Source: Ectocarpus siliculosus
Lineage: Eukaryota; Sar; Phaeophyceae; Ectocarpales; Ectocarpaceae
Direction of reading: 5' to 3'
Assembly: GCA_000310025.1 (NCBI GenBank)
Contig: FN649741.1
Span: 2,096,163-2,116,954, forward strand
DNA length: 20,792 bases
The notes under the pieces were generated by a model. The model did not search any database. It saw only the letters and a list, made by a program, of their open reading frames with translations, and was not told where the DNA came from. The position numbers and the translations under genes are program-made. Below, piece by piece: positions 1 through 20,792 of the stretch. Numbering within the stretch: the stretch's first letter is position 1; every line of letters starts with the position of its first letter.

Positions 1-385
1 GTTCAGGTTGGGCCCCACCCTTTTCCCCAGGTTTTTTGGGTAGCCGGAAAAAGGGGGAAATTTTTTTTGGCCAACCCTCCCCCCAAGGGGGGGGGGGGGC
101 CTTGGGGTTTTCCGGGGAGTGGGGGGAAAAATATTTCTTTTGGCCACAAACCCGCCCCTGTGGGCCCGGAAAAAATTTGTTTTTGGGGTTCCTTCCCCCC
201 CACCCACTTGGGCCCTTGTGAAAAAACATTCCAGGGTTTTTTGGGGATTTTTGGAACCCCCCCCCCCCCTCCCCTTGGGGGGGGAAAAATTTTTAATTTT
301 TGGGGGAGGTTTTGTTCTTTAGCCATCCCCAAGAAGGTAAGCCCTGGGGGAAAGGGGGGACCCCCGGGGGGGGGGGGGGGCGCTG
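1..385. other. Low-quality contig end
   Basis: Almost the whole stretch is runs of one base (long G, C, T and A blocks), very unlike the sequence after about 385. The open frames here encode only Pro/Gly/Phe/Lys-rich strings that follow from the homopolymers. I read this as an untrimmed read tail, so no gene is called. The missing 5' exon of ispH may lie here or beyond. Confidence 0.8.
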
Positions 386-793
386 CGTGGCGGGTCTCTG
401 TGATACGTTCTGAGACGTTGCTCAGACGTCGCTCAGACGTCACGCGTTCGCTGTCTGCGAAGAAGGGGTTGGTTTTCTATCTAGCTGTGACAGGGAAGAA
501 CCACGACTCTGTGGCACGTGAGCGGAGCTACTGTAGTATCAATGGAGGGGTGTGTACCCGGCCCGACGGGGGGGCTGGGGATGGTACTAGTTTATATTTT
601 CGGCGTGGGTATCAAGACACGTTTTCTGGGCTTATGTTTTCGCCCAGTTTCTCCACCTGGGAAAGAATAAAGGAACACCCGACCTACCTACTACGGAGAC
701 CGTGCGTTAGGCGCCAAGTGGATTTTGTCCGTTCATGAGCACTGACAGCTCGAAATGATGATGCCTGCTCCCCCGTTGCCTGTGGTGTCGCAG
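386..793. other. 5' flank or first intron of ispH
   Basis: No recognisable exon was found here. A conserved block found in plant IspH just upstream of the first exon seen (a segment around an Asn-Tyr-Asn-Arg motif) is absent from all three forward frames. A pyrimidine-rich tract followed by a CAG at 791-793 looks like a splice acceptor, so this stretch is probably intron with the targeting exon further upstream. An in-frame ATG at 755 is the alternative start. Confidence 0.45.
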
Positions 794-3700
794 GAGGACG
801 TTTCGGCGCTCATGTCGGACGAGTTCACGAGCGACATCATCTCGGAGTTCAAGGAGAACAAGGGCAGCATCACGAGGGGTGACACGACCTTCAAGCTCGC
901 CGAGTACTACGGCTTCTGCTGGGGGGTGGAGAGGGCGGTAGCCATGGCGTTCCAGGCCAGAAAGCACTTCCCCGACAAGGTAATGACGACATTGGTGGTT
1001 CCTTTCCCCTCAGACACCTCTGTTGTGTCCAAACACGACGGCTCTAAACTTGGCACCCTTGTTTCGTGCCAGCTTGCCTCGAGATCTTCACACGCAGACT
1101 TGGGCGCCCGGGTTTTGTACATGCCGGACGAAAATTTCCCTCCTTTTGCATTGGCTATTCCCCCCAGGAGGACGGTTCCTGTCGTAGTGCAGCGTGCCTG
1201 TTGATGGTGGGTAAAAAACCATCACCGGCGCGGTTTTGTGTTCTTCTTGAGTTTCTCCACATCTACGATGTGGTTGGCGCGTCGAGTTCGGCAATATCCA
1301 CTCACGGAAGCGTATGGCCGACTTTTTTCGCGGTGTTTGTCTCTCTCCGTTGCCATTTTCTCCCTGCGTTGCCAGACTATGCACATCACGAACGAGCTGA
1401 TCCATAACCCGGGAGTCAACGAGAAGCTGGATGAAATGGGCGTCAACTTTGTGCCAGGTCTGGGTGACAGTAGCTGCTCAGATAAAATTGTCCACAGGTG
1501 TCGTTTATCTCTGGTGTTGACTGACCACATTATGAAGTCGTTGCCGAAGAGGAGCAACATGCTTGTGGTTGCTGCTGTGTGTATTTCTTTGCTCTGTTGG
1601 GCGGCTTGGGCGGCAGCAGTGCCGGTCGGTGGACCATACGACGGTACAATTAATTTTGCCAGCCTGGCGTGATTTATTCTCGCGTTTTGTTGTTTCTGTC
1701 GTGGAAGGTGGCGTTCGTTCTGTCGTGTTTTTCCTTTTGGCGCACGGCGCTCGCGCTTTTCGTGCAAGTAAATTTAGCGTTGCGTTGGGATTGTTTGGAC
1801 GGGCCCTGGAAGTATCTAGAATGTATCCACGACAGCAGTCGTTGTTGGCGTTTCTTCTCCTCGTCTCGCCCCACTTGAGGGCATCAACATCCGCCCGATG
1901 GTTTTCAGTCTCACCCCCCGCCTCTTGCATTGTCGGCATTGCTCTCTCCCCCATCACCCCCTCTCCCGTAAATCTCAGTGAGCGACAAGGGCGGCAAGGA
2001 CCTGGAGACGATCGATGACGGAGACGTTGTGATCCTTCCGGCGTTCGGCGCGTCCCTCGAGGAGATGCAGACGCTCGACGAGAAGAACGTGCAAGTGGTA
2101 GACACGACCTGCCCCTGGGTGAGCAAGGTGTGGAACACGGTCGACAAGCACACCAAGGCGCAGTTCACCTCGGTGATCCACGGCAAGTGGGCCCACGAGG
2201 AAACGGTGGCGACGGCCTCCTTCTGCGACAAGTACCTGGTGGTGAAGAACATGGCCGAGGCCGAGTACGTTGCCGCGTACATCGCCAACGGGGGCGGCGA
2301 CAAGGCGGAGTTCATGGAGAAGTTCAAGAACGCCATGTCGGAGGGCTTCGACCCGGACGTGGACCTGGTGAAGGTAGGGCTCGCCAACCAGACGACCATG
2401 TACAAGCGCGAGACCCGCGACATCGGGAAGCTGTTTGAGAAGACGCTCATGGAGAAGTACGGCCCGGCAGAGGTCGGGGAGCACTGGATGGCGTTCGACA
2501 CCATCTGCGACGCGACACAGGAGCGGCAGGTAAGGCGGGAAGAGGGGGGTTCGGGCGGCGGTGAACCAGGAAGGGATTGTAGTTTTGGTGACTCAAACGC
2601 GGTGGCAATTTCATGTGGAAGGAGTTTGATAGCGATGGGGGGGGGGGGGTGTACTCATAGTCGTGCATGCCGTAGTCGTTAGACCATTGACCTCGCATCC
2701 CTACAAAGCCGGGACGGAGCACGCCGGGTTCTAACCGGACCAGGCTCTCACATCACCAAGCGCGAAGCGCCGTGAGGTATTCGGCGAGTCGCATGAAGGG
2801 TGCGCTGCATCCTGCTAAGGGTCGGGGGGAGGTTGTTTGCTTTCTATGAGGGCTGCTGCTGCTGCTTTGTGTGTTTTGTTGCTGGTTTTGCGGCGATCGG
2901 TCACCTGCTCTCTTTGCCCATGTGCATCGGTCCCGGCGTCACATCGAAGGACAAGACTCTTGTTTCGTTCCGGTTCGACGTTAGCCGGTACCTCTCGGTG
3001 CTTCCACCGGTACTGCTGGCTCGCAGCGCTGGTTCTGTACTGGTGCGAAGCTGGTTGTACAGTTCGATGCCGCCAAAGGTCTGTTCTACTGCGGCTGCCG
3101 CCACTGCTGTGCGTATGCGTTCACATGTATTTCGTTCAGCACACTCATCGTTGTCCTTGCCGTACCGTGTACTGACGCTGCTGCTGCTGCTGCTGCTGCT
3201 TCGCGTACGTACGTGCTTCGACTGCGGACAGGACGCCATCTTGGAGCTGGTGGAGGAAGAGATCGACCTCATGCTGGTCGTGGGAGGGTGGGACTCGTCC
3301 AACACGCAGCACCTCGCGGAGATCTCCGCCAACAAGGGCATCCCGACGTTCTGGGTCAACAAGGCTAACTGCGTCAAGCCGGACGGGTCGATCGCCCACG
3401 TCGACCCTCACTCCATGGAGGAGCTGCGCACCGAGAACTTCCTGCCCGCGGGGGAGATCGTGATCGGAGTCACCTCCGGCGCGTCCACCCCGGACGCCTA
3501 CATGGAGCAGGTGCGGAGACGGGACTCGGTGTCTGGATGGGGGGGAGGGGGGGGGGGGTGCTCTTGGGCTGTTTTCCCCGCGCTCTGAGCGAAACACCGA
3601 AGCAGCAGCAGTTGCAGTGACTCGCTTGGGTGCGCCAATTCGGTGGCCTTGCGTTTTTCTGCGCCTTGCTCTCCTTCCGACTCTCTTTGCTCTATGTTGG

Positions 3701-11277: not shown

Positions 11278-11322
11278 ATGCAAGCTGTTAGGTTTTCCAG
11301 CTCCGGCAGGGTGGGACATGCA
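11278..11322 (-). pseudogene. LRR exon relic (minus strand)
   Basis: On the minus strand a core reading LPELENLTAC follows CCCACC, matching the middle of the LRR consensus, but there is no clean acceptor, the second half has decayed and no 72-bp frame remains. It fits the alternating order of the array, lying just before the motif at 11402 and the plus-strand exon at 11489. Confidence 0.35.
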
Positions 11323-11488
11323 GTGAACGAGCAAGTACGGCTTGAACGAGGCACAGAAAAAACAAGGTCGCGTTCCCGCGGCCTCTAGAACACCAAACTC
11401 ACCCACGCCGTAGGCGTGTAAGTGATACATAAAATGCGGGAGAACGACTTGTTTCCCCCGGTAATCCGTATTTGCTCATTCGCTGCAG

Positions 11489-11559
11489 GTCCCATCCCGC
11501 AGGGGTTGGAAAACTCGCAGCACTGCAGCAACTCTACCCTACGCTAAACCAGCTAACCG
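11489..11559 (+). pseudogene. LRR exon with 1-bp deletion (plus strand)
   Basis: Acceptor TGCAG and donor GTGAGT are intact, but the exon is 71 bp instead of 72. It starts GPIPQGL, and after one missing base the rest reads KLAALQQL and LNQLT, which is a normal LRR. Unrepaired, it shifts frame and meets stops. This is either a pseudo-exon or a sequencing error. Confidence 0.75.
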
Positions 11560-11740
11560 GTGAGTTTCTTGTTTTGCCCTGATCGAGGTCATCAGGATGA
11601 ATCTCGCCGATGGGTGGGCGAGTAGGTATAATGTTTCCCCCGATAAACTTTCAGGTTCAGGATGAATCCCACCAATGCGCATGTCAGATTCAAGCAATCT
11701 GGTGTGACGTGTACATGCCGACTCCGTCGGAGACAGTTAC

Positions 11741-11812
11741 CGCTGAGCTTGTCCTGGTCCAGGCGGAGCGATTCCAGCTTGGCGAGCTGCCCTAGCGACG
11801 CCGGAATTTCGC
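11741..11812 (-). CDS. Intact 72-bp LRR exon (minus strand)
   Basis: On the minus strand, a CAG acceptor and a GTAACT donor bound exactly 72 bp encoding one plant-type LRR: GEIPASLGQLAKLESLRLDQ followed by DKLSG. All consensus positions (IP, LG, the spaced Leu) are kept. Phase 1 at both ends, so exons of this kind can be added or lost without changing frame. In phase with the 10447 exon downstream. Confidence 0.8.
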
Positions 11813-11998
11813 CTGCGTGGTACAGAATACAGGAGGCGAGGAGGTCGTTTGTTCGTCGGTGGCATTTTTCTAGATAATCGATCTCCGTAGATCTTATCCC
11901 GCCCACGCCGTGGTGAGTAGGTGCGTTATAGAAGCCCGGTAAGTCCCCCCCAGCTAAAGTTGGGATGACAAACGATTGTTCGCCATTTCCGCACGCAC

Positions 11999-12060
11999 GT
12001 TACCGGAGGAGCTAGGGAAGTTGATTGGTGTATTTATCTCGACAGCAACAGCCTTTCAGG
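11999..12060 (+). pseudogene. LRR exon relic (plus strand)
   Basis: Reads LPEELGKLIG, then after a frame break YLDSNSLSG. The acceptor position has CAC instead of CAG. Recognisable as a decayed LRR exon in the plus orientation. Confidence 0.6.
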
Positions 12061-12181
12061 AAATTATTTCGAATTCGTTAGAACATGCATGAATCCAGTG
12101 TAGGCGTTGGCGGGACACGTGTCCATATATATTCATTTTTCTTTAGCGTGCGTACAAATACGTTTCATTTTCTGTCTGCAG

Positions 12182-12247
12182 GACGAATTCCTGAGGCGCT
12201 GGGATTGTAAAAAGTTGCTCCGCTGGGTTCTAGAAGCCTAAGCGCCA
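12182..12247 (+). pseudogene. LRR exon relic with stop (plus strand)
   Basis: Follows a good TCTGCAG acceptor and starts GRIPEALGL, then TAA. The second half is degraded and shorter than 72 bp, and no clear donor is seen. Confidence 0.6.
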
Positions 12248-12330
12248 CTAGAAGCGTACTCGGTGTTGTAGGAAGGGTGCGATAAATGTTTGTTTTTCCC
12301 CGCTAATCTGCATTTCCTCATTCCTTGCAG

Positions 12331-12402
12331 GCCCCATCCCGCCAGAGCTGGGAACCCTCAGAAAGCTAAACACGCTGTCGTTCTTCCGCAACCAGCCCAC
12401 AG
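12331..12402 (+). CDS. Intact 72-bp LRR exon (plus strand)
   Basis: A pyrimidine-rich TTGCAG acceptor and a GTGATT donor bound 72 bp encoding GPIPPELGTLRKLNTLSF followed by FRNQPTG. Phase 1 at both ends. One full LRR of the GxIPxxLG type. Confidence 0.8.
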
Positions 12403-12549
12403 GTGATTTATTGCCTCGATTTAGCTTATTTCTCGAACTGATTCCATGGGTGAATCCTGCAAATGCGTTGGCGGGACAGATGGTCTTCGAAACCGAACGA
12501 CGAATTCTGAAAAAACAGAATGAAGTGAATGTCTTGATGCACACTTAAC

Positions 12550-12621
12550 CAGTAAGGTCGTTGTCTTCGATCCAAAGACTCTCCAGCTGGCGTAGGGCTC
12601 CTAGCTCCTCGGGGATTCGCC
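12550..12621 (-). CDS. Intact 72-bp LRR exon (minus strand)
   Basis: On the minus strand an ACAG acceptor and a GTTAAG donor bound 72 bp encoding GRIPEELGALRQLESLWI followed by EDNDLTG. Phase 1 at both ends and intact. Its closest sibling by sequence and orientation is 11741-11812. Confidence 0.8.
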
Positions 12622-12804
12622 CTGTTCAAGTCGCATAGCAGAAACGTCACCAAGACTGCATATTTCTATAACAAACATTTTCACTCCCTTCCTAGATAAT
12701 GTGTCCCACGTAGGTGTGGGCGAGTAGGTGGTGTTCCAGAAGTCAGCGGATTTGTTGCACAGAATTCAAACAACACGCCTTGCTTTAGACTTGCTCATCT
12801 ACAG

Positions 12805-12876
12805 GACATATCCCACCGCAGCTAGGAAATCTGAGCGCCTTGGTGCAGCTCAACCTCCGCTGGAATAAGTTGGATG
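12805..12876 (+). CDS. Intact 72-bp LRR exon (plus strand)
   Basis: A CTACAG acceptor and a GTGAGT donor bound 72 bp encoding GHIPPQLGNLSALVQLNL followed by RWNKLDG. Phase 1 at both ends. Near-identical to 13256-13327, including the flanking intron, so the two arose by a tandem duplication of about 451 bp. Confidence 0.85.
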
Positions 12877-12995
12877 GTGAGTCCAGCATGTCCAACACCG
12901 CAAATGATTATTTCGAAATCTGCAGAAACAACAGCATGCTGAATCCGGCCCACGCGTTGGCGTGACAAATGCATCTTATAATAAGCCTCTCTCAC

Positions 12996-13067
12996 CAGAA
13001 AGGTGGTTTTCAGAGAGCTAAAGCGTCTGCAGCTTGCGGAGATCTCCCAGCGCCTTGTGAATGGGTT
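12996..13067 (-). pseudogene. 72-bp LRR exon with in-frame stop (minus strand)
   Basis: Minus-strand TTACAG acceptor and GTGAGA donor with exact 72-bp length and phase. It reads PIHKALGDLRKLQTL, then TAG, then LSENHLS. The stop occupies a variable position between the conserved leucines, so one base change has silenced an otherwise intact exon. Confidence 0.75.
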
Positions 13068-13255
13068 CTGTAACAGGCGAAAACGAACGGGCGAAAGTGT
13101 ATGAACTTAAAGTAGTCAACCTTTTACAGAACATCGGGCCCACGTATCTTCTAGAACATGCGACCTAGTCGCCAACGCGTGGGCGAATAGGTGATCGTCT
13201 AGAAGCGAACGGATTTGATGTTCGGAATTCCTTGCTTTGACTTGTACACCTACAG

Positions 13256-13327
13256 GACACATCCCACCGAAGCTAGGAAATCTGAGCGCCTTGGAGCACC
13301 TCAACCTCGGATGAAACAAGTTGGATA
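13256..13327 (+). pseudogene. 72-bp LRR exon with in-frame stop (plus strand)
   Basis: Duplicate of 12805-12876: CTACAG acceptor, GT donor at 13328, exact 72 bp. Reads GHIPPKLGNLSALEHLNLG, then TGA where the sibling has TGG (Trp), then NKLD. The flanking intron is also duplicated. Confidence 0.8.
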
Positions 13328-14572
13328 GTAGTACAGGGCGTTCAACAGCAAATTTTAATATTTCTCTTGAAAACCCCACCCACGCGTGGGTGAGTAGCTG
13401 TTCTAGCAGGTTTGGAGGAACACATTTCTAGAATGCAACCCATCAATTATTCAAAATCGAAAACTTGCTGAACTATACAGTGGAAGTATATAGTTCGTCC
13501 CCATTGAACTGGTGAGACAACCACTTGACATCCCCTTGCACACAGTCTAGAAGCGAAATCGGACGTGTTCAGCAACAAAACCAACCACCAAGCCAACCGG
13601 TCCGGTGCGGAACGGATTACTATTATTTATCGCAAACGATCAAGAATACGGCAAAAGACGCGTCCGTGAGAATACCCTTACTCTGGCAATGAGAATATCC
13701 TTACTTTGCGAGTAAAGGTCCCTGAAGTGGTGAATAACCGTTCACCAACCGAGGTAAGTTCGCTCTTATTGCAATGTGGCAAGGAATGGCCAAGCGTGGG
13801 TGACTTTAGTCGGCCTTGCTAGGTTGAAAGGTGAGAGTGAGCTTCGGGGGCCCGCTTCCACCCTTCGGTTGGTCACAGCAGACGGAGGGTCTTTTTGTTG
13901 TAAAGATCTTCACACCTCGAGAACGTCGTTCCTAGGACCAAGGAAAAGAGCTGTTGATCCAAGCCCGTTTCGCGGCCCTCAGCACCAAACATCACTCGGC
14001 AATGCACCCTCCCTCGAAACTTCGCCAGAGTGAATTGCGCAGGCAAGGATATCATTGGGGTTGGGCGGAATTTTGGATCCCCACTACCTGAGCTGTTAGG
14101 AAGAACAGCCTGTCTACTGAAAGCGGCCCCTGTGCAAGAGCACACGAGACACACTACAATAGACCCGTCGGAAGGCATCGGGAAAAACGAAATTCGTTGA
14201 TGCTCGCACAGGGCGGCAGTAGAGGCTGCTCTAAACATACTCCGAGTATGTATCATGCAGGCTACCTCCACACGCCTCGTTGAAATCAAAATAAACTTTC
14301 ACAAGTTGAAAGAGCCAGAACGGCGGGCGCTCAAATTAGGTCGGTCGTTTTTGCATTCTATCTCCACATAACTATGATCTCACTCGAGGACACACCCTAT
14401 AGCGGCGGGGTGTGTGTGTTGGCGCGCTCATTTCTGCTTCTGGGGTGGTGATATCGAGGGTCGAAAAAGCGGCCTACGATTTCCGCAAATTGGACCAACA
14501 CCCAGTGTGCTGCTTTTTTTTTGCGAGGTCAAGGGTTACGGGTCCGTAGCGGTCAGCACCGCTGTGACAAAT
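13328..14572. other. Downstream flank of LRR array, no confident gene
   Basis: A further copy of the array motif is at 13376-13400. A short imperfect direct repeat (GAGAATAyCCTTACT) occurs around 13670 and 13691. The minus-strand open frame 13873-14289 has no recognisable motif and no splice evidence. Sequence related to the outer edge of the inverted repeat may begin near 14448 (ATATCGAGGGTCG, compare the reverse complement near 15335-15355). Confidence 0.4.
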
Positions 14573-15298
14573 GTTAAGGGCGCGGGGGGGATCGCAGTAC
14601 CTCCTCTTCAAAAAAACAGGAAACGCCTGGAAACGCCTGCATATCTCGGTTTTCCAAAGTCTAACTCCAGTACGAAACTACCATCGTAAATTAACCGCCC
14701 GCAGCGGTCGCTTGTGTACAATGTTAGTAGCTGAGGTTGTACCCCTTGCGATACACTACAGACTAGCGGTCCGCGATTTTCCAAACGATCCTTCTATCAT
14801 CGAGTTCGGTGAGCTACAAGCTAGATTTTTGAAGCTGCTGTGCGGTCCAATTTTGAAACGCTTCAAGCACACGGTGAACACGAATCACCGCCTATGTGAG
14901 TGTATGGGGCCGCGAACTTCAGCGCAGCTCTTCCCTCACATACCCAGCTGGTCGCCATTGTCGATTTGAATGCCTAGGGTCATGTATATGCATGTCCAGC
15001 CTTTAGGCAAAGGTGCTTGAAGCGTTTCAAAATTGGACCGCACAGCAGCTTCAAAAATCTAGCTTGTAGCTCACCGAACTCGATGATAGAAGGATCGTTT
15101 GGAAAATCGCGGACCGCTAGTCTGTAGTGTATCGCAAGGGGTACAACCTCAGCTACTAACATTGTACACAAGCGACCGCTGCGGGCGGTTAATTTACGAT
15201 GATAGTTTCGTACTGGAGTTAGACTTTGGAAAACCGAGATATGCAGGCGTTTCCTGAATTTTTCAGAGGAGGTACGGCGATCCCCCCGCGCCCTTAAT
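14573..15298. mobile_element. Long inverted repeat (fold-back or MITE-like element)
   Basis: Left arm 14573-14870 and right arm 15013-15298 are reverse complements separated by a 142-bp centre. In the inner 230 bp or so I see a single mismatch (CTACCATCG versus CTATCATCG). The left arm also carries an extra GGAAACGCCT duplication and the outer 50 bp diverge more. Both arms therefore show the same open frame read inward, which is a consequence of the repeat rather than evidence for two genes. No transposase was found. Long arms with a short centre suit a non-autonomous fold-back element or a hairpin RNA source. No target-site duplication could be defined. Confidence 0.8.
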
Positions 15299-16226
15299 GT
15301 TCGGTTCCGGCGCAGATTATGGACTGTTTTTTTGAGACTGCTGCGACCTTCGATATTTCTGCTCCAGCAGTAAACCTGAACGTTCCAGCCTAGGCATCCG
15401 GCGCCGCTTTCTGGTGCCTCTACTGAAGATGGAACCGGCGGGAAGGTTGCTATCTTCTTGAAGTATATTGGGTAAAGTATTAATATAGAGCCAGTGTCAG
15501 AACAAAGGTGGCGTCGGTCCCGGAAAAAAACACTCACTCTGGCACTCTCGGTAGGGATCTACGACCCGGGTGCGTATCATCTCGCCGACTGGTGTTCTCT
15601 CCACGTGTCTGGTGCGCACCAGCGTCAGACGGACTCCGGCAATCCTGCATTAAATACTTACTTGCCTTCGGGGGTTGGCCAGCAGATCCGCGGTATTGGG
15701 TATAATAGGGGGAGTGCAGCTTGGACCCTGTCGGTCCTTTTGTTGTGACTGACCACGCCACCGCTTTCTTCGTGCAGCTCCCCTCTGTACGGTTGACTAC
15801 ACCGCGGTAAATGGGTACCTTCTGGAGCTCTCCTAAATACCTGCCCACCACGCGCTTGTGATTGAACAACATGCAAAAATGGATGATGCATGACATGATG
15901 ATGTGTGTGTATTCTCGGCGGGGGGGGGCACCTTTTAATGTTGCAATCCGCGGGTTCTCCGCTTGGTGACAGCAAGTGACAGCAACTGCTGCTGCTGCTG
16001 CTGCTGCTGTGCGTGTGCTTGAACCAGTGCCCGCCACTTGACCTTGGAGAGAGCATGAGCTCGGAAGATGTCGCTCCTGTGCAGCTGGTGAGCCCCCGCA
16101 GCGTAATCATGTGACAATGACGACGTGCTGTAAAGGCCGTGCTTGGCAGGAAGGGCTTGTTGGCCTCAACCATTTTTCCATTTTGAAGTTGGACATTGGA
16201 CGCACACCTCTTTTAGTTTGTTACAG
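15299..16226. other. Unresolved region with CTG repeat
   Basis: A plus-strand frame 15494-15748 (DPGAYHLADWCSLHVSG) is open but without splice or family support. The minus-strand frames are Ala-, Gln- or Ser-rich because of the CTG tract at 15986-16009 (8 units). Confidence 0.35.
15986..16009 (+). repeat. (CTG)8 microsatellite
   Basis: Eight perfect CTG units, preceded by two imperfect GTGACAGCAA copies. Confidence 0.9.
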
Positions 16227-20200: not shown

Positions 20201-20616
20201 AGCCCCTTTCGTTTGGGCCAATAAGCCGCTCGAGAAGAGGCTTCCATCTCCTTCTTTTGCAACGTTTCCTCCGGTAGCGACACCCCTCGCTTGTCCCTCG
20301 AGGAGATATTGTACTCAGACTTTGGAAGCGTACCTCGAACGAAATGAGGAGGCTGCGACAAGAGGCATTGTCCTCCATCAATCCCAACACACACCACCTC
20401 CCCCGCCCTCATCCTCCCCCCGGACAGGCCATTCTTGAGGAAACCTCTCTCGAGAAGAGGCTGCGGCGGGTGCTGGAACTCGTGCGCGAGCAGACACGGG
20501 TTCTCTCGATCGCCAGCAAGATTAACTCGGAGGTGGAGGGAAAGCTCAACAGTCGGCACAGGGAGTACTACCTCCGGCAGCAGCTCAAGGCCATCCGCTC
20601 TGAGCTTGGCGAAGAG
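17273..20616 (+). CDS. Lon protease (ATP-dependent, S16 family), N-terminal part, 3' truncated by contig end
   Basis: Lon is an AAA+ serine protease that degrades damaged proteins in mitochondria or peroxisomes. Exons are 17273-17460, 18270-18474, 18833-18952, 19555-19737 and 20428-20616; phases agree throughout (introns 809, 358, 602 and 690 bp), giving 295 residues. Exons 1-4 form the LON substrate-binding domain: VFVVRDRVLFPGG at the start, GKPKSVRLVE, TILVAIFTQ, then VGCAAKVVQM and YSVLVQGVSRIRLL, which is the VtLrGlsRi motif of the family. Exon 4 gives KALSLNLREAAQALLEVLKS and SSINIPTNQKQ. Exon 5 gives ILEETSLEKRLRRVLELV, then NSRHREYYLRQQLKAIRSEL, the conserved helical region before the ATPase. 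The Walker A/B motifs and catalytic Ser-Lys dyad would follow but lie off the contig. A Gly-rich insert is present in exon 2. The LFPGG...GKPKSVRLVE form recalls plant LON2 (peroxisomal), but the compartment cannot be settled without the C-terminus. The acceptor at 17272 (AAAAG) is weak and the start codon is not certain. Confidence 0.9.
18201..18224 (+). repeat. (GT)12 microsatellite in Lon intron 1
   Basis: Twelve perfect GT units 45 bp upstream of the exon 2 acceptor, next to a T/C-rich stretch. Confidence 0.95.
18350..18388 (+). repeat. GGC/GGA repeat encoding a Gly tract in Lon exon 2
   Basis: GGC-GGA-type triplets encode about 11 consecutive glycines between DQQQRPGA and EGRILSTM inside the LON domain. 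The frame is kept on both sides, so it is a coding repeat and probably a surface loop. Confidence 0.85.
19009..19098 (+). repeat. CAG/CAC-rich low-complexity stretch in Lon intron 3
   Basis: Imperfect CAG, CAC and AGAAG triplets; the complementary frame encodes poly-Leu/Val. Lies in intron 3, so not translated in the gene model. Confidence 0.7.
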
Positions 20617-20636
20617 GTGAACAGGTTAATTGAGCC

Positions 20637-20792
20637 TGGGGGGGGGGGGGGGGGGGGGGGGGGGAAAAAGGGAAAAACCTCTGGGGGGGGAAAAAGGGGG
20701 GCCCCCCTTTTTAAAGAAAATTCCTCCAAAAAAAAACTTGTTTTCGGGAAAAAATTTTCCCCCCAAAAAAAAAACTTTTTTTTTTTTTGAAA
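20637..20792. other. Low-quality contig end
   Basis: Long G runs followed by alternating A, G, C and T homopolymers, like positions 1-385. Reliable sequence ends near 20636, soon after the donor at 20617. The apparent continuation of the Lon frame here should be ignored. Confidence 0.8.

What the first reader, a model, noticed from the sequence alone, without database searches (positions are those of the whole stretch)
11278..13327. LRR exon array with exons alternating on both strands
Ten LRR exons or relics lie in about 2 kb. Six are on the plus strand (11489, 11999, 12182, 12331, 12805, 13256) and four on the minus (11278, 11741, 12550, 12996), interleaved, mostly as plus-minus pairs at a period of about 450 bp. 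Exons in both orientations keep their own acceptor, donor, 72-bp length and phase 1, so either strand could supply in-frame repeats to a transcript. Published work on Ectocarpus candidate receptors (ROCO, NB-TPR) describes exon-per-repeat LRR or TPR shuffling; alternating orientation within one array goes beyond a simple tandem array. It could be an inversion-competent reservoir of receptor repeats, or the outcome of inverted duplication. The functional reading is inference.
Basis: partly seen in the sequence, partly recalled or inferred. Interest (0 to 1): 0.88.

Follow-up and report, generated by a model that had tools for sequence, protein, structure and literature searches.

The report
Mobile LRR exon cassettes, both orientations
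What looked like one odd cluster of receptor exons facing both ways is an old member of a wider set of about 240-base exon cassettes that move one at a time, land in either direction and, in related receptor genes, seem to count only when they face the gene's way.

Summary
In detail: all ten exons or relics were re-found. But 4 of 10 are intact, two per strand, and I found no N-terminal exon and no Roc hit nearby. It looks like an old orphan array.

It belongs to a wider class. I fetched 24 other mixed-orientation arrays and 4 one-strand controls. The unit is a ~240-bp cassette with one 72-nt LRR exon: of 1264 match rows between arrays 1062 hold one exon and 18 two; 530 direct, 532 inverted. 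Cassettes meet at palindromic junctions, two half-sites around a GC or TA core; a cassette mostly keeps its own half-site whatever its neighbour.

An N-cap exon was found in 14 of 24 loci and always points into the array; Roc hits lie beside 4. Sense exons are intact in 142 of 154, antisense in 81 of 129; the gap lies in older cassettes. Four binding-face codons are hypervariable.

So 'either strand supplies repeats' is not supported; cassettes able to stand either way are. The mover, and any somatic role, are unknown.

The parts
11284..11326 (-). LRR exon fragment (relic)
   Evidence: nhmmer E 0.021, model positions 12-54 only
11404..11420 (.). probable cassette junction (CACGCC..GGCGTG), degenerate
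   Evidence: motif scan; not scored by the profile
11489..11559 (+). LRR exon, 71 nt (1-nt frameshift), splice sites kept
11597..11628 (.). cassette junction, donor-donor, centre after 11612
   Evidence: score 22.4
11741..11812 (-). intact 72-nt LRR exon GEIPASLGQLAKLESLRLDQDKLS(G)
11892..11923 (.). cassette junction, acceptor-acceptor, centre after 11907
   Evidence: score 14.1
11995..12059 (+). decayed LRR exon, no acceptor AG
12089..12120 (.). cassette junction, donor-acceptor, centre after 12104
   Evidence: score 22.2
12182..12253 (+). decayed LRR exon (stop, GC donor)
   Evidence: no junction found between it and the next exon (score -8.4)
12331..12402 (+). intact 72-nt LRR exon GPIPPELGTLRKLNTLSFFRNQPT(G)
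12450..12481 (.). cassette junction, donor-donor, centre after 12465
   Evidence: score 27.4
12550..12621 (-). intact 72-nt LRR exon GRIPEELGALRQLESLWIEDNDLT(G)
12699..12730 (.). cassette junction, acceptor-acceptor, centre after 12714
   Evidence: score 15.5
12805..12876 (+). intact 72-nt LRR exon GHIPPQLGNLSALVQLNLRWNKLD(G)
12939..12970 (.). cassette junction, donor-donor, centre after 12954
   Evidence: score 28.0
12996..13067 (-). LRR exon, 72 nt, splice sites kept, one TAG
13162..13193 (.). cassette junction, acceptor-acceptor, centre after 13177
   Evidence: score 14.5; listed without mismatch to the palindrome pattern
13256..13327 (+). LRR exon, 72 nt, one TGA, splice sites kept
13374..13405 (.). 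probable outer junction after the last exon (CCCACGCGTGGGTGAGTAG)

Best explanation
The array is a decayed, gene-less member of a mobile exon-cassette system that builds the LRR part of ROCO-type receptor genes in this genome. The unit is a cassette of about 240 bp: a half-site, about 94 nt of intron, one symmetric 72-nt LRR exon, about 68 nt of intron and a second half-site. Cassettes are copied or moved one at a time into junctions between other cassettes, where half-sites of consensus GTNGGCGGGA (read inward) meet around a 2-bp palindromic core, GC or TA. Because the site and its core are near-symmetric, insertion goes either way with equal chance. In a working gene an N-cap exon sits at one end and a Roc domain at the other; sense cassettes add one in-frame repeat each, antisense cassettes are silent and decay unless turned round. 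Shown: unit, junctions, equal orientation, gene context in part of the loci, decay asymmetry, hypervariable codons. Inferred: that orientation sets inclusion at splicing, that moves happen by cutting and joining at the junction core, and that inversion can restore a silent exon. Unknown: the enzyme, and whether it acts in germ line or soma.
For: Genome: 504 exact hits to a 5' exon pattern against 2 for the reversed control. Unit: of 1264 match rows >=85% between 25 mixed arrays, 1062 hold one exon, 18 two, 184 none; single-exon rows 530 direct, 532 inverted (each pair appears from both sides, about 632 distinct pairs). Spacers add up: acceptor-acceptor 188, donor-donor 136, donor-acceptor 163. 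Ends of single-exon matches: of 1676, 1144 lie within 60 nt of a located centre and 672 of these within 8 nt, against 15-134 with the centre shifted by 20-45 nt. Junction profile: 233/348 above the 99% shuffle level, 7/147 intron pieces of one-strand genes; hold-out 108/174. Half-sites: own half conserved in a family (0.74-0.96 at positions 2-16), partner half less so (0.24-0.82); position 1 follows the partner. Copies: 60 pairs >=97% over >=200 nt, 53 between loci. Gene: N-cap in 14/24 loci, 14/14 pointing inward (four of the 14 supplied the query peptides); Roc hits beside L006, L011, L013, L024, tested by Pfam in L006 and L024 and against the PDB in L024. Use: intact sense 142/154, antisense 81/129; singletons 73/82 against 31/73, recent ones 69/72 against 50/56. 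Binding face: with mean intron divergence 1.0% (29 pairs), four codons differ at 12.1% of bases and the rest of the exon at 1.4%. A solitary cassette outside any array: L032.
Against: No moving enzyme was found: Resolvase and Phage_integrase give one partial hit each, just over cut-off. A search for clean empty and filled sites was inconclusive because families repeat. 115 of 348 scored junctions miss the threshold and 25 of 373 were not scored for their length; only 4 of 14 N-cap-to-first-exon spacers reach it. 532 of 1676 match ends lie more than 60 nt from any located centre. The palindrome alone is not confined to arrays: 141 places with up to 2 mismatches against 64 for the reversed control. 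GC and TA cores differ on the two sides of 17 cassettes, which simple one-step insertion does not predict. Both N-cap and Roc were found in 2 loci only (L011, L024). COR-A was found once, not beside these arrays. I chose the 24 loci for mixed orientation, and relatedness among exons makes the Fisher p-values optimistic. No RNA data.
Confidence: 0.75

Rival explanations
1. Exon-carrying TIR element (MITE-like): each cassette is a non-autonomous DNA transposon that makes a 2-bp target duplication and prefers the ends of its own kind. Same cassette, different mover.
For: Inverted ends and a 2-bp core at each joint; one solitary copy away from arrays, L032.
Against: The two ends of one cassette hardly co-vary (0.581 against 0.562 over positions 1-12); GC and TA cores on the two sides of 17 cassettes, TA-TA in 3; one end of the solitary copy lacks its half-site and no clear target duplication was seen. 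No transposase family was searched for.
Confidence: 0.35
2. Two-way reservoir: exons on both strands supply repeats to transcripts of either strand.
For: Splice sites, length and frame are kept on both strands in recent cassettes (69/72 sense, 50/56 antisense).
Against: Older antisense exons decay, 31/73 intact against 73/82 sense; in 14/14 loci where an N-cap was found it points into the array from one end.
Confidence: 0.07
3. Ordinary inverted or tandem segmental duplication followed by decay.
For: +12805 and +13256 match over 128 nt at 84%; 9 of 108 distinct family adjacencies are shared between places.
Against: Matches hold one exon, not runs of exons, in random orientation; control LRR arrays and three NB-ARC loci show direct repeats only; ends cluster at junctions.
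Confidence: 0.04
4. Misassembly of repeats placed minus-strand copies wrongly.
For: Homopolymer-rich poor sequence at both window ends; arrays are repetitive.
Against: The same unit, junctions and 1:1 orientation recur in 25 arrays; decay follows the gene strand, which assembly error would not be expected to produce.
Confidence: 0.03
5. The palindromes are intron hairpins selected for splicing control, not joints.
For: Palindromes recur in the spacers.
Against: The two halves vary independently at all positions but the first; each half goes with its cassette.
Confidence: 0.05

Closest known systems
Brown-algal ROCO genes with one LRR per 72-bp exon (Zambounis et al. 2012, recalled, not held; Teng et al. 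2024, PMC11378527: abstract, sections 11 and 15, and passages)
   Same: 72-nt symmetric LRR exons; N-terminal LRRs before a Roc domain; four variable concave-face sites; LRR-only sequences suggested as a reservoir.
   Different: What I saw of Teng et al. describes exon shuffling and alternative splicing; the words antisense, opposite, orientation, inverted and palindrom do not occur in its main text, nor did I see single-exon cassettes or junction half-sites there.
Lamprey VLR donor cassettes (PMC3308329, passages seen)
   Same: [quoted passage not shown] fixed ends with variable interior.
   Different: VLR donors flank the gene and are copied by a gene-conversion-like process in lymphocytes; here cassettes sit inside the gene as exons with splice sites and their own end sites, and somatic change is not shown.
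Integron gene cassettes and attC sites (recalled)
   Same: Cassettes joined through hybrid palindromic sites in an array.
   Different: Here each junction is two cassette-owned half-sites, orientation is random, the cargo is an exon, and no convincing integrase was found.
Exon-carrying DNA transposons, e.g. a CACTA element in soybean (PMC1947982, search listing only)
   Same: Inverted ends (recalled), gene pieces moved and spliced.
   Different: Those carry captured gene fragments; here one uniform exon per unit, packed in arrays within the host gene.
NB-ARC genes with TPR-like repeats in the same genome
   Same: Receptor-like genes with repeated units.
   Different: Three loci fetched: internal repeats all direct, none inverted; TPR-like reading frames seen in L030 and L031 lie on one strand each, TPR by eye only.

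Membership tests
Brown-algal ROCO LRR-exon genes | 72-nt LRR exons in one phase | tested here: met
   Window 4 of 10 intact; 290 intact of 398 profile hits in 25 arrays, 3 of the hits being N-caps
Brown-algal ROCO LRR-exon genes | Roc domain downstream, same strand | tested here: not met
Met for 4 of 24 other mixed loci (L006, L011, L013, L024)
Brown-algal ROCO LRR-exon genes | COR domain | tested here: inconclusive
   One COR-A hit genome-wide, just over cut-off; Teng et al. also report that InterProScan did not identify COR in brown algae
Brown-algal ROCO LRR-exon genes | Positive selection on concave-face sites | tested here: met
   Class, not window: codons 15, 17, 19, 20; divergence counts, no codon model fitted
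Brown-algal ROCO LRR-exon genes | Exons spliced in varied combinations | not testable with these tools
   No RNA data
Lamprey VLR-like somatic assembly | LRR cassettes in both directions | tested here: met
   VLR description
Lamprey VLR-like somatic assembly | Somatic rearrangement in immune cells | not testable with these tools
   One reference assembly, no reads
Integron | Tyrosine recombinase (integrase) acting on the array | tested here: inconclusive
   One partial PF00589 hit at C76:55488, just over cut-off, not at a fetched array
TIR / MITE transposon | Terminal inverted repeats | tested here: met
   Shared half-site profile at both ends
TIR / MITE transposon | Target-site duplication at insertions | tested here: inconclusive
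   2-bp core at each joint, but cores differ across 17 cassettes; solitary copy has lost one end
TIR / MITE transposon | A transposase acting on these ends | not tested
   No transposase family was searched for

The most novel reading that the evidence does not exclude
A dedicated recombination system acts on half-site junctions to move and invert single LRR exons inside ROCO receptor genes, so that exon orientation works as an on/off switch for each repeat, germ-line or even somatic: a eukaryotic exon-cassette repertoire outside animals, with parallels to lamprey VLRs and integrons.
Probability: 0.35. Interest if true: 0.97.

Novelty: new variant of a known kind. Interest (0 to 1): 0.88.

Why it matters
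Brown algae were proposed to build receptor repertoires by exon shuffling, perhaps somatically, but no unit, site or joint was shown in what I could read. This gives all three: a cassette with defined ends, a junction motif with a 2-bp core, and a readout (orientation against the gene strand, with decay of antisense exons). Each can be tested with long reads from single tissues or sister strains. It also gives a natural case where DNA inversion could switch single protein repeats on or off.

Tried and rejected
Conserved-hairpin idea: rejected, since the halves of a junction vary independently. Targeted hypermutation of the binding-face codons: not favoured, since fourfold synonymous sites inside or near the stretch are mostly not raised (codon 18: 0/199, codon 13: 0/164; exceptions codon 12 26/129 and codon 16 31/198), so selection fits better. 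Same arrangement at NB-ARC genes: not seen in three of the 27 listed hits; repeats all direct (38, 78 and 9 pairs, 0 inverted). My first motif scan for TPR found nothing there; TPR-like frames were then seen by eye in L030 and L031, not checked by a family search. Empty-site comparison: inconclusive. Recombinase search: two families only. COR search: one hit. A first near-perfect-palindrome scan of the window gave nothing at its threshold because the palindromes are imperfect. The left flank of L012 was cut wrongly by my script (negative index) and was not used. Structure prediction was not run: spliced exons joined together are not letter-for-letter window sequence.

Limits: the listings are cut at about 100 places of 504, 105 and 107 matches; arrays beyond those lists were not seen, and partial matches point to further, unfetched places (such as C15:4023582 and C33:926927). 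I picked L001-L024 because they looked mixed. By inspection, whose list is cut within C7, the dense clusters on C1, C4 and C5 were mixed and the sparse ones on C2 and C3 one-strand. An N-cap may lie outside the fetched stretch in some of the 10 loci without one. Gene strand of L006 and L013 was taken from the Roc hit. Junction thresholds use single-base shuffles; spacers outside 60-320 nt were dropped (25 of 373). Family cut-off was 88% identity over at least 180 nt.

Full report
Observation. A profile of 72-nt LRR exons re-finds all ten claimed exons on the claimed strands, the 11278 relic only weakly, with no hit in 20 shuffled windows. Four of ten are intact: -11741, +12331, -12550, +12805. 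The others have a stop, a shift or lost ends. The best match of each window cassette among the fetched loci is 69-89% identical, in different loci, often over part of its length only. Of ten ORFs tested, three hit Pfam, all LYTB, between 755 and 3585 (one is just under its cut-off). So the window seems to hold an old orphan array.

Genome-wide class. A 31-place pattern for the acceptor and first half of the exon has 504 exact hits, 222 forward and 282 reverse, against 2 for the reversed control. I fetched 24 loci whose hits were dense and on both strands, and 4 control loci with hits on one strand. In the 25 mixed arrays (with the window) the profile finds 398 hits, three of them N-caps. The 41 exons of the controls are on one strand in each locus, and their median spacer is 834 nt against 136-188 nt in the mixed arrays.

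The unit is one exon. Comparing all mixed arrays, 1264 match rows of at least 85% identity and 90 nt were found, about 632 distinct pairs. Of the rows, 1062 hold exactly one exon, 18 hold two and 184 none. Single-exon rows are direct in 530 and inverted in 532. Control arrays gave 14 match rows, all direct, up to three exons, median 1.5 kb. Spacer lengths add up as expected if every cassette carries about 94 nt before and 68 nt after its exon: acceptor-acceptor 188, donor-donor 136, donor-acceptor 163.

Junctions. A half-site profile shared by both sides, read from the centre inward as C-G/A-T-N-G-G-C-G-G-G-A, marks 233 of 348 scored junctions above the 99% level of shuffled spacers, and 7 of 147 pieces of control introns. 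Trained on 13 loci, it marks 108 of 174 junctions of the others. Of 1676 ends of single-exon matches, 1144 lie within 60 nt of a located centre; 672 of these lie within 8 nt of it, against 15 to 134 when the centre is shifted by 20-45 nt. The two halves vary independently except at position 1, z 10.9. Members of one family mostly keep their own half-site while the partner half differs; only position 1 follows the partner, for example C with C or A with A at the acceptor end of family F1. Cores are GC in 188, TA in 20 and other in 25 of 233. This is what joining of cassette-owned half-sites around a 2-bp core would leave behind. The palindrome by itself also occurs elsewhere: 141 places with up to 2 mismatches against 64 for the reversed control.

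Recent movement. At 88% identity 159 of 398 cassettes fall into 35 families; the two largest have 17 copies each, in 10 and 9 loci, on both strands. Sixty pairs are at least 97% identical over 200 nt, 53 of them between loci; one fully identical pair lies in opposite directions inside L003. Of 117 neighbouring family pairs 108 are distinct and 9 adjacencies are shared. L018 and L019 share the pairs at both ends but not the order between. L002 and L003 have N-cap flanks 96% identical over 1050 nt and share the first cassette in place, with different neighbours after it. Genome searches with two cassettes listed 18 and 17 near-full-length copies (candidates capped); all lie in the fetched arrays except one in C26, which is solitary in the 5 kb fetched, with one half-site kept and one lost.

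Gene context and use. An N-cap exon (MASTDREAL...NNLRG type; sub-threshold LRR_10 scores in Pfam) was found in 14 of 24 mixed loci and in all 14 points into the array (four of these loci supplied the query peptides). Roc hits lie beside four arrays, on the same strand as the N-cap in L011 and L024, without a found N-cap in L006 and L013. That of L024 is a full Roc, closest in the PDB to a leucine-rich-repeat protein (4wnr) and LRRK2. With the gene strand set in 16 loci, intact exons are 142 of 154 sense and 81 of 129 antisense, p 1.5e-9. In recent cassettes the two do not differ significantly (69/72, 50/56, p 0.18); in singletons they do (73/82, 31/73, p 6e-10). Related exons are not independent, so these p-values are optimistic. 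The simplest reading is that cassettes arrive intact either way, sense ones are used and kept, antisense ones are not.

Binding face. Among 29 cassette pairs with intron divergence under 2% (mean 1.0%), codons 15, 17, 19 and 20 differ at 12.1% of bases and other exon sites at 1.4%. Fourfold sites between them are mostly not raised, codons 12 and 16 excepted, so selection rather than regional hypermutation is favoured, in line with the four sites reported by Teng et al..

Not general to repeats. Three NB-ARC loci have only direct internal repeats; in two of them TPR-like frames are visible, on one strand.

Mechanism. I favour insertion and inversion at junction cores, by an unknown enzyme. A TIR element with a 2-bp duplication remains a serious rival. 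Resolvase and integrase searches gave one partial hit each, just over cut-off. Whether any of this happens in somatic cells cannot be tested here.

Literature. Teng et al. 2024 (abstract, sections 11 and 15, and passages) describe 72-bp LRR exons, alternative splicing and an LRR-only reservoir, and note that no somatic rearrangement or recombinase is known. The words opposite, antisense, orientation, inverted, transpos and palindrom do not occur in its main text. The listings (10 of 95 shown) showed no other report of antisense or palindrome-flanked LRR exons in brown algae. Zambounis 2012 was not held, so priority is not settled. Lamprey VLR donor cassettes also lie in either direction (PMC3308329, passages).

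Noticed in passing
window 1-400 and 20640-20792: Both ends of the window are rich in stretched homopolymers and look like poor-quality read ends.
   Followed up: partly
window 755-3585: Split LYTB (ispH, HMBPP reductase) gene on the plus strand, three ORFs, the first just under the Pfam cut-off.
   Followed up: yes
window 20344-20640: ORF that resembles the N-terminal part of a Lon protease by eye (recalled); Pfam gave no hit to this ORF.
   Followed up: no
window 14570-15300 and L017 1-600: Dispersed repeat shared with the flank of another array, in both directions (82-90%).
   Followed up: no
L032:2431-2644: Solitary LRR cassette (92% to family F1) with no other LRR exon within the 5 kb fetched; donor-side half-site kept, acceptor-side lost.
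   Followed up: partly
L031:1804-6094: Direct tandem repeat of about 745 bp, ~91% identical, downstream of an NB-ARC hit.
   Followed up: no
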